Below are positions 7,101-10,100 of a stretch of DNA of 24,588 bases, piece after piece; positions within the stretch are counted from its first letter, which is position 1; every line of letters begins with the position of its first letter. The notes beneath the pieces were generated by a model, which worked only from the letters and a program-made list of their open reading frames with translations, was not told where the DNA came from and searched no databases. This DNA comes from a virus. The stretch is taken from positions 1 to 24,588 of IMG/VR virus record IMGVR_UViG_3300010885_035833; one strand, written 5' to 3'. A program made the translations under genes and the position numbers.

Positions 7101-10100
7101 TTGAGCTTTAGGATCTGCAATTATAGTTGCAACATTATAAGCACTTATTTTTCTTTCTACTCCTGCAGGAACTGTAGTTTTATTTTTTACCCAATAGTAA
7201 TAAAAATTACTAAAAGAATTAGATACTGGGTCCCATACTTGTTTTACAGATACAACTGAGTTATCAGAAAATTTTGGTTGTCCGCTTATGCTTTGGGCAA
7301 GGCCGTCAGTTGTATCAGATATCGCTAGCCACTGGCTAGGCAAGTAAGGAGTGCCCACCCATTCATAGACGTCAATCATCGATCCCGGAAACATACTATT
7401 CCAATTATTTTTTCTAAATTCTAATTCGCCTTGTTCGTACCAAGTATACTTTATCGAACTTAGATCCCACCATAATTCGCCAACATGTTCATCTAACCAA
7501 TTAGCTGTAGTATCTACAGATACGCCTGGAAGTCCAATAGAATAAATTGCAGGATCAAATAATGATTTATAACGAAGTTCTTGGTCTGCTATTCCTGAAA
7601 TTTTTCCTTTAATAGGATCAATAATTTCTAAGTAATCGACAATACTATCTGTCTCAGTATCGATAGTTTTTATATTTTTAATATTATCTAGATCAACCAA
7701 TGCTGTTTCTTCACGTAATGGGTACCAACTGTCTAAAGTGGTAGATTTAGATTCATATAGATACAACGCACCTATTTGATTGTTAATATAATTTTGGCCT
7801 GGTGCTCCTACAGTTATGTAACTATCAGCAACAAACATACTTTTTCCGTATATTTGATCAGTTGATACTCTATTATCAAATAGTTCTTCGGCAAAAACAA
7901 ATTTATTTTGTTTTTTAACAAAAGAAAATACTGCACCCGAATTTTTTACTGTGGAATAAAAATTCACTGTGCCTGAGTCAAATGTTGTAGCAGACTCTCT
8001 AAGAGCACTGTTTGAATCAAGAACATATTTAGGTGAGCCTGATTTTTGTTTTGAAAACACATCAAAGGTTAGGTAAGGTCGATGTGTAGACCCAATACTT
8101 GATACTACTAACGTTTTTCCGTCAGACGATAAAGACATGTTAGCACCAAAATCATAACCATTATCAATAAACGGATTGCTAATTATTTGATTTAAACTAT
8201 AACCAGTTAAATTTCCTATAGAATTGTATTGTGCTTCAAACACAAAAATCTTTCCAACTTTACCATTATCGCCCAGTGCTTTGGGTGCTGACACATATAG
8301 ATAATCGCCAGAAGTATCCAATAATATTTTTTCTCCAAAACTATCACCAACTTTAACGTGATCAATTAACTCTGCATCAGTTATATCTTTTGTTATAATG
8401 ATAGCATTTGGTAAGAATGATGCTAGTCTTACATACCCACCGCCAATTGCTGACACTGCTAGTCTTTTAACTTGTCCTTTGTTTACTGCTATGCTATGAC
8501 CGTATCTGTCGCCTGATGCAGGCACATGCCCTGACTGTCCAAAAAAGTTGATTACTGTGCTTGTAGACACAACATTGGTGCTTAAATTTAATGTAGTATA
8601 GAATATTGTTCCAGCATCATTATTAAATCCTGGGGCTGATACAACAACAAATTTAGAAAGATTAGAATTAGATGACACTGCTACATCCCAACCAAATTGT
8701 GCATATGATTGAGGTATTGGACTTGTGAATACTGCTCTGTCAACAGCAGCCGCTGTAGGATTTTCAAAATCAAATTTAACTATCTGTATCAATCCTTCTT
8801 CAATTTTATTTGATGCTGTGCTATTAGGATTCACAGTTGTAAAATGACTAGATGTATTTCCATACTTAACATGAGATGCCTTAGGTGCTCCGACTAATAC
8901 CCACCCACTGTCTTCGTCAAATTCAATTGACTGGCCAAACATAGGAACATTTGTTCCTGTAAAATATGTTGAGATTGACGAAGGATTAATATTTCTACCA
9001 CCTGCATAAATTAAACCGTTGGCGCCCTTGCCTGATTTATTATAAGCATACAATCTTCCGTATGATGGAGAAATTGATGATTTATAATTAGTTGAGGCAA
9101 CAATTAATTTACTACCTTTACTATTTCCTACTATTGAATACCCGTATTGTTGATTACTGTTAGCACCGAAATTTGTAGGAGAATCATAAAGTGTAGATTC
9201 AAAATTATTAGTTTTTTGATATACTGCCCATTTTCCAGACCCACTATCATTGACCCAAATTTTTTCTTTGTTCCTAAATTTGTCAAAGGTTGGTAAAGTA
9301 GTTAGATCATCAAATGAATCAAATCTAGAACTAACAAATTTGAATAATATTCCTATCTGAGGATCGTACGGTGTTGTTAAATCAGTTATAGTTGATTCAA
9401 GAATTATTTGATTTAGCTCTGGTATAGATTCAACAGTATATACTCCATCAAGATACGGATCAAATTGTGAAATACTAATTATATCTCCAACAGATAGATT
9501 ATGAAAAGAATCTGTAGTAACTAATAATGACGATCCAGGAATATAAATTGCAACATCAATTACTTTAGATGATAACTGTGTATAACGATAAACTCCCCAG
9601 TCTCCATTATTTTCAAATCCAAGCCAAACTGTGTCACCGTCTTTAAGGGCTCTATTATTTGCAATATCTAATAGACTGTTTTTATTAAAAGCTGTTGCTG
9701 TAATATCATCAATCCTCACATAACCGGCTACAGGAAGAGTACTGGCAATATCGCTGTACTTAGTTGTAGTACTAAATGGGGAGTTTCCATAATTATCAGG
9801 TTTTATTTGTACGTCTTTTGATTCAATATAAGAAATAAAATCTTTTGTAACGACAGGTTTTGTTTGAACAAAGTTAACAATCTGTGGATTTTCTTTAAAC
9901 TCTGATTCATTTAAATTAAACTCAAGAGTTTGATCTGTAGAATACGCTCCATATTCGCCAACTCGAACTGCCCAGTCTTCGTAAAAATCTATATAACTTC
10001 CTTGAGAAATTACACTGGCTTTACTTAATTTTTCAACTGTATTCCTTGTGCCTTTTTCTTTGATAAATCCTTGATAAAACTTGTACTGACTAATTGCATT

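What the first reader, a model, noticed from the sequence alone, without database searches (positions are those of the whole stretch)
7740..9182. Complete seven-blade FG-GAP (integrin-alpha-like) propeller inside a phage baseplate protein
Seven (F/Y)G openers, each with a matching GAP-like strand, occur in about 470 residues. Seven is the number needed to close an integrin-type propeller. I know of no well-characterised phage example. It would be an attractive host-surface or ligand-binding head.
Basis: partly seen in the sequence, partly recalled or inferred. Interest (0 to 1): 0.8.

Follow-up and report, generated by a model that had tools for sequence, protein, structure and literature searches.

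The report
Integrin-type propeller in phage baseplate protein
A giant tail-tip protein of an uncultured jumbo-type phage carries a complete seven-bladed ring like the head of human integrin receptors. It probably helps the phage touch its host, and although similar rings are annotated in a few other phages, nobody has described or tested one in this place.

Summary
Residues 2117-2595 of a 4769-aa minus-strand protein (window 7710-9146) are predicted to form a closed integrin-type propeller of seven four-stranded blades. Pfam FG-GAP_2 scores 32.6 bits against a cut-off of 23. A profile of 48 relatives finds integrin alpha chains in the PDB (best E 1.2e-17). AlphaFold2 on that alignment gives pLDDT 83 and pTM 0.84, and the 27 best Foldseek PDB hits are all integrin alpha chains.

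The host protein is the gene directly after gp6 in a T4-like baseplate operon. Its family (phrog_10938) includes virion proteins of PA5oct, RaK2 and other jumbo phages. All 70 uncultured relatives that span the site carry the propeller; eight cultured homologues do not.

The propeller evolves faster than its flanks. Long loops, and 400-650-aa inserts in relatives (some with carbohydrate-binding modules), are concentrated in the B-C and D-A loops, the face where integrins carry their I domain. I infer an exposed adhesin head; binding is untested.

It is not categorically new. FG-GAP propellers are annotated in cyanophage S-TIM5 and Vibrio phage nt-1. Cyanophage S-MbCM6 has one inside the giant protein after gp6. 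PhiKZ gp131 and phi11 gp45 are solved baseplate propellers. Calcium motifs of integrins are absent.

The parts
1185..15494 (-). giant virion structural protein (4769 aa), gene directly after gp6; host protein of the propeller
   Evidence: phrog_10938 virion structural protein, 1119.6 bits; homologues in eight cultured jumbo phages, PA5oct homologue marked ESI-MS/MS
7710..9227 (-). integrin-type (FG-GAP_2) seven-bladed beta-propeller with its N-terminal hairpin, aa 2090-2595
   Evidence: Pfam, PDB profile search, AlphaFold2, Foldseek
9183..9227 (-). N-terminal beta-hairpin (KWAVYQ...NFES), aa 2090-2104, immediately before blade 1
   Evidence: DSSP on model; W-x-V-Y strand conserved in A4
8988..9146 (-). 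blade 1, aa 2117-2169
8724..8939 (-). blade 2, aa 2186-2257
8796..8885 (-). 30-residue B-C loop of blade 2; 400-500-aa domains are inserted at this place in relatives
8559..8696 (-). blade 3, aa 2267-2312 (outer strand weak)
8379..8504 (-). blade 4, aa 2331-2372
8178..8339 (-). blade 5, aa 2386-2439
7881..8150 (-). blade 6, aa 2449-2538
7935..8093 (-). 53-residue B-C loop of blade 6, with the clade-typical TTFD motif
7710..7850 (-). blade 7, aa 2549-2595
10395..13457 (-). conserved core of the giant protein (aa 680-1700; motif THPWEMLGF in the family)
15494..19159 (-). gp6-like baseplate wedge protein (1221 aa)
   Evidence: phrog_10646 and phrog_219, baseplate wedge subunit
19210..19683 (-). 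gp25-like baseplate wedge protein (ORF from TTG; an ATG lies at 19644)
   Evidence: phrog_43
19653..21911 (-). gp5-like baseplate hub protein
   Evidence: Gp5_trimer_C and Phage_base_V, both below their cut-offs; phrog_13211 and phrog_196
2..1183 (-). collagen-like tail fibre protein, cut by the window end
   Evidence: phrog_6320, tail fiber protein

Best explanation
The feature is a seven-bladed integrin-type (FG-GAP_2) beta-propeller of about 480-500 residues, set into the giant virion protein encoded directly after gp6 in a T4-like baseplate operon of an uncultured jumbo-type myovirus. Shown by computation: the family, the predicted fold, the blade count and its conservation across the clade. 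Inferred: the giant protein is carried around the baseplate in the wedge region, with the propeller as a globular head. The face formed by the B-C and D-A loops points outward and contacts the host surface, most likely glycans, as a reversible adhesin or auxiliary receptor-binding head before the baseplate switches. Variable loops and exchangeable inserts on that face would tune specificity. My confidence that the fold is a seven-bladed integrin-type propeller is about 0.95; that it is a surface-binding head, about 0.55.
For: Fold: Pfam FG-GAP_2 over cut-off, in 43 of 48 relatives. Profile A4 hits integrin alpha-4 (E 1.2e-17), alpha-6, -M, -E, -X and -V. AF2 pLDDT 82.9, pTM 0.84, 7 x 4 strands. 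The 27 best Foldseek PDB hits are all integrin alpha chains, TM 0.55 by query and up to 0.66 by target. Location: gene order gp5-like, gp25-like, gp6-like, this gene, collagen-like fibre; homologues sit directly after gp6 in cultured jumbo phages, and the PA5oct one is annotated ESI-MS/MS. Exposure: propeller identity is lower than the flanks in 53 of 53 relatives (mean 31% against 48%). Against the closest relative dN is 0.146 in the propeller against 0.056-0.102 outside the propeller and its adjoining N-terminal segment (0.156), with similar dS. Mean loop lengths are B-C 16 and D-A 15, against A-B 4 and C-D 6. Relatives carry 400-650-aa inserts, mostly in the blade-2 B-C loop, and Pfam CBM_5_12 lies in or near such inserts in L062, L104 and L084. 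FG-GAP_2 also occurs inside the post-gp6 giant protein of cyanophage S-MbCM6.
Against: No ligand, host or virion structure is known for this phage. The propeller is internal to a very long chain, and its position in the particle is inferred from gene order only. Fast evolution and loop variation also fit relaxed constraint on a peripheral scaffold. Cultured homologues do without the domain, so it is not needed for the core function. CBM_5_12 hits are short, just above the cut-off, and in relatives only.
Confidence: 0.55

Rival explanations
1. The propeller is an architectural module: it spaces or docks baseplate parts (wedge to wedge, or the collagen-like fibre encoded next) and does not bind the host.
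For: It lies within a giant structural chain next to gp6-like and fibre genes; it is present in all 70 relatives spanning the site, as a fixed part would be; other families fill the same place with repeated beta modules.
Against: It is the least conserved long stretch, carries large variable inserts on one face and is missing in cultured homologues that keep the rest.
Confidence: 0.3
2. The propeller is an enzyme, for example a polysaccharide-degrading domain acting on the host coat.
For: Several beta-propeller superfamilies are enzymes, and paraoxonase and lactonase propellers appear lower in the Foldseek list.
Against: The top fold hits and all strong profile hits are integrins, which are not enzymes; no enzyme family was detected. 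I did not search for conserved catalytic residues.
Confidence: 0.06
3. The domain serves environmental attachment (particles, mucus-like matrix or a second organism) rather than recognition of the host cell.
For: Carbohydrate-binding modules lie in or near the inserts of relatives; related propellers occur in giant-virus proteins, some with collagen repeats.
Against: Placement in the baseplate operon suggests contact at the cell surface; no direct evidence either way.
Confidence: 0.09

Closest known systems
FG-GAP_2 segment in the 7022-aa protein S-MbCM6_080 (annotated gp8 baseplate wedge / virion structural protein), Synechococcus phage S-MbCM6
   Same: FG-GAP_2 propeller (147.8 bits) inside a giant protein encoded directly after gp6
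   Different: the conserved core of the jumbo family is not found in it; different chain, propeller far inside at aa about 4458-4750; apparently a separate recruitment
Stand-alone FG-GAP_2 proteins of phages: S-TIM5 gp054 (virion structural), Vibrio nt-1 ORF127, Atu_ph07 gp320, Phosso gp129/130, UFOVP1367_22
   Same: same repeat family; S-TIM5 gp054 and Atu_ph07 gp320 match the model in BFVD
   Different: separate small genes, not embedded in the post-gp6 protein
Integrin alpha N-terminal beta-propeller
   Same: seven four-stranded blades, FG in strand 1 and GAP in strand 2, top PDB matches (PMC3192720); large insert on the same face in relatives
   Different: no calcium motifs, only four of seven Cage prolines, no beta-subunit partner; inserts in relatives lie within blade 2, not between blades 2 and 3, and none matched a known family apart from CBM_5_12
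PhiKZ gp131C (seven-bladed, PDB 4GBF) and phi11 gp45 (five-bladed) baseplate propellers
   Same: beta-propeller in a phage baseplate protein with proposed receptor binding (PMC4901313)
   Different: not among the best 50 fold matches of this model; phi11 has five blades; not FG-GAP as far as the texts say

Membership tests
Pfam FG-GAP_2 (PF14312) | curated score cut-off 23 bits | tested here: met
   32.6 bits on the region; 43 of 48 relatives match at E 0.01. On the full 4769-aa chain only 12.8 bits
Pfam FG-GAP (PF01839) | curated score cut-off 22.1 bits | tested here: not met
   6.8 bits
Integrin-type seven-bladed beta-propeller | seven four-stranded blades in a closed ring | tested here: met
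   28 blade strands, pTM 0.84, full-length match to integrin propellers; predicted, not solved
Integrin-type seven-bladed beta-propeller | aromatic-Gly pair in strand 1 of every blade | tested here: met
   seven of seven in the window; glycine kept in 42-48 of 48 rows
Integrin-type seven-bladed beta-propeller | GAP/Cage proline in every blade | tested here: not met
   blades 2, 3, 5 and 7 only
Metazoan integrin alpha propeller | DxDxDG-type calcium motifs in A-B loops of blades 4/5-7 | tested here: not met
   no D-x-[DN]-x-[DN]-G in any of 48 rows
phrog_10938 giant virion structural protein (jumbo phages) | profile match over the core | tested here: met
   1119.6 bits; core alignment A3
T4 gp7 baseplate wedge initiator | detectable sequence or profile similarity | tested here: not met
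   shares only the place after gp6
T4 gp8 / T4-GC_108 (S-MbCM6_080) | shared conserved core | tested here: not met
   core profile finds neither T4 gp8 nor S-MbCM6_080; only repeated beta modules are shared
Phage receptor-binding protein | specific binding to host receptor | not testable with these tools
   needs the expressed domain and host cells

The most novel reading that the evidence does not exclude
A clade of uncultured jumbo-type phages uses an integrin-like adhesin platform in its baseplate: a propeller head whose outward face accepts whole binding domains in the blade-2 loop, as integrins accept the I domain. It would be an independent viral parallel to the integrin solution for exchangeable ligand binding, and was recruited separately in T4-like cyanophages.
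Probability: 0.35. Interest if true: 0.65.

Novelty: new variant of a known kind. Interest (0 to 1): 0.47.

Why it matters
If the propeller is a receptor-binding head, a whole clade of abundant uncultured jumbo-type phages recognises hosts through an integrin-type fold. The loop inserts would then be candidate host-range determinants readable from sequence alone. It also shows how giant baseplate proteins grow, by fitting ready-made domains into one variable site between conserved parts. It gives a compact, expressible domain (about 500 aa) for testing glycan binding without culturing the phage.

Tried and rejected
AlphaFold2 with only two sequences failed (pLDDT 28.9) and says nothing; a 48-row alignment of the clade was needed. 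Single-sequence and two-sequence searches of the PDB found nothing meaningful. tblastn of the propeller against 50,697 phage records found nothing; distant relatives as queries found cyanophages. A chance origin of the motif was rejected. Homology of the giant protein with T4 gp7, T4 gp8 and S-MbCM6_080 was tested and not found, so it is named by position only. A hidden propeller in the eight cultured homologues was tested with the clade profile and not found. Scans of viral contigs with Phosso FG-GAP queries gave almost nothing. Literature searches for FG-GAP in phages gave no relevant paper.

Full report
OBSERVATION. Window 7740-9182 on the minus strand translates without stops as residues 2105-2585 of a 4769-aa ORF at 1185-15494. 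Seven (F/Y)G openers lie at aa 2117, 2186, 2267, 2331, 2386, 2449 and 2549. A strict FG...GAP-like pattern occurs six times; shuffles of the same residues average 0.38, and 1 of 5000 reaches six. None of 55 other 481-aa windows of the same protein holds one. Pfam FG-GAP_2 (PF14312) scores 32.6 bits against a cut-off of 23 on the isolated region. On the whole chain it is diluted to 12.8 bits, which would hide the domain from routine annotation. PF01839 is not met.

SETTING. The window is a 24.6-kb IMG/VR virus contig. It holds a minus-strand T4-like baseplate operon: a virion-structural protein (phrog_11190), a gp5-like hub, a gp25-like wedge protein, a gp6-like wedge protein, the 4769-aa protein, and a collagen-like fibre cut by the window end. 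The giant protein belongs to phrog_10938 (1119.6 bits). Its homologues are encoded directly after the gp6 gene in PA5oct, Atu_ph07, Phosso, RaK2, Serratia BF, Munch and others; the SCTP-2 operon carries no such annotation. T4 has gp7 at this place, but no sequence similarity to gp7 or gp8 was found, so the relation is positional.

INSERTION SITE. Sequence similarity to the cultured homologues runs up to about aa 1876-1984 in most and resumes at about aa 2590 in all. Between these anchors the homologues have from about 216 to 1530 aa. Atu_ph07 and Phosso fill the site with repeated modules found in other phage structural proteins. None of the eight cultured homologues has a propeller by Pfam, in those scanned, or by the clade profile.

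A CLADE-WIDE DOMAIN. A scan with the conserved core (motif THPWEMLGF) found at least 591 relatives among viral contigs and kept the 80 nearest. Seventy span the site, and all seventy carry the propeller. These are the relatives nearest to the window, so the figure does not describe the whole family. In a 48-row alignment the glycine of each of the seven FG openers is kept in 42-48 rows. FG-GAP_2 is recognised in 43 of 48 members, best E 7.1e-27.

FOLD. A two-row AlphaFold2 run failed. With the 48-row alignment the model has pLDDT 82.9 and pTM 0.84, without templates. It shows 28 blade strands in seven sets of four, preceded by a hairpin. The sequence profile hits integrin alpha-4 (E 1.2e-17), alpha-6, -M, -E, -X and -V in the PDB. 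Independently, the 27 best Foldseek matches are all integrin alpha chains, aligned over the whole domain, with TM about 0.55 by query and up to 0.66 by target. Membership is not complete. Calcium motifs are absent in all 48 rows, and the Cage proline is present in four of seven blades. The defining features were taken from PMC3192720.

WHICH FACE WORKS. In a four-stranded antiparallel blade the A-B and C-D loops lie on one face, the B-C and D-A loops on the other. In the window the mean loop lengths are A-B 4.4, C-D 6.1, B-C 16.4 and D-A 14.8; length variation across relatives follows the same split. About a dozen relatives have 400-650 aa or more inserted in the propeller, mostly in the blade-2 B-C loop. 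In seven of them the insert is one homologous domain of about 430 aa, with no PHROG match in the four that were scanned. CBM_5_12, a carbohydrate-binding module, passes its cut-off in or near inserts in L062, L104 and L084. Integrin I domains are inserted between blades 2 and 3 (PMC3192720), that is on the D-A side, the same face. This is a parallel of layout, not evidence of descent.

TEMPO. The propeller is less conserved than the flanks in 53 of 53 relatives (31% against 48%). Against the nearest relative (77% identity over the propeller), dN is 0.146 in the propeller and 0.056-0.102 elsewhere, apart from the adjoining segment aa 1951-2104 (0.156). dS is similar throughout. The domain therefore changes faster while still under purifying selection.

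PRECEDENTS. FG-GAP_2 proteins exist in other phages: S-TIM5 gp054, annotated virion structural; Vibrio nt-1 ORF127; Atu_ph07 gp320; Phosso gp129 and 130; UFOVP1367_22. The nearest precedent is S-MbCM6, a named T4-like Synechococcus phage. The 7022-aa protein encoded directly after gp6 contains FG-GAP_2 repeats at 147.8 bits. The conserved core of the jumbo family is not found in that protein, so the two look like separate recruitments. Solved baseplate propellers of other types are PhiKZ gp131C and phi11 gp45 (PMC4901313). Giant viruses also have such propellers.

CONCLUSION. The novelty claim needs softening. The best reading is an exposed adhesin head with a variable outward face, at about 0.55; an architectural role is the main rival. 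Shown by computation: family, predicted fold, blade count, clade-wide presence, loop asymmetry, faster change. Inferred: position at the baseplate rim, outward orientation, glycan or host binding.

Noticed in passing
L021 (Sinorhizobium phage Phosso, PV764938.1 48338-68978): Two neighbouring proteins of 3162 and 3692 aa made largely of FG-GAP_2 repeats (tens of copies, probably several propellers in a row), annotated only as hypothetical.
   Followed up: partly
L104, L087, L070, L071, L062, L101, L067 (blade-2 loop inserts): A homologous domain of about 430 aa inserted inside the propeller; the four copies scanned gave no PHROG match.
   Followed up: partly
L081, L066, L090 (propeller inserts): Unrelated inserts at or near the same site: tail-fibre-like repeats in L081, other sequence in L066, extra FG-GAP-like units in L090.
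   Followed up: partly
window aa 3333-3449 of the giant protein (about 5148-5498): A small beta module ([12 protein letters not shown]...) that recurs in S-MbCM6_080 and in the variable site of Atu_ph07 and Phosso (phrog_460-type), a travelling building block of giant phage proteins.
   Followed up: partly
window 19653-21911: The gp5-like hub protein ends in a domain (aa 521-710) shared with phrog_196 baseplate hub and phrog_4928; the sequence looks like a lytic transglycosylase.
   Followed up: no
window 1-1000: The collagen-like fibre gene has clearly higher GC (0.48) than the rest of the operon (0.29-0.42).
   Followed up: no
window 11043-11420 and 11519-11869 (+): Two plus-strand ORFs lie antisense within the giant gene; most likely mechanical, not genes.
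   Followed up: no
BFVD matches: The closest viral fold matches are giant-virus proteins, several with collagen repeats; the window also has a collagen-like fibre gene next to the propeller gene.
   Followed up: no
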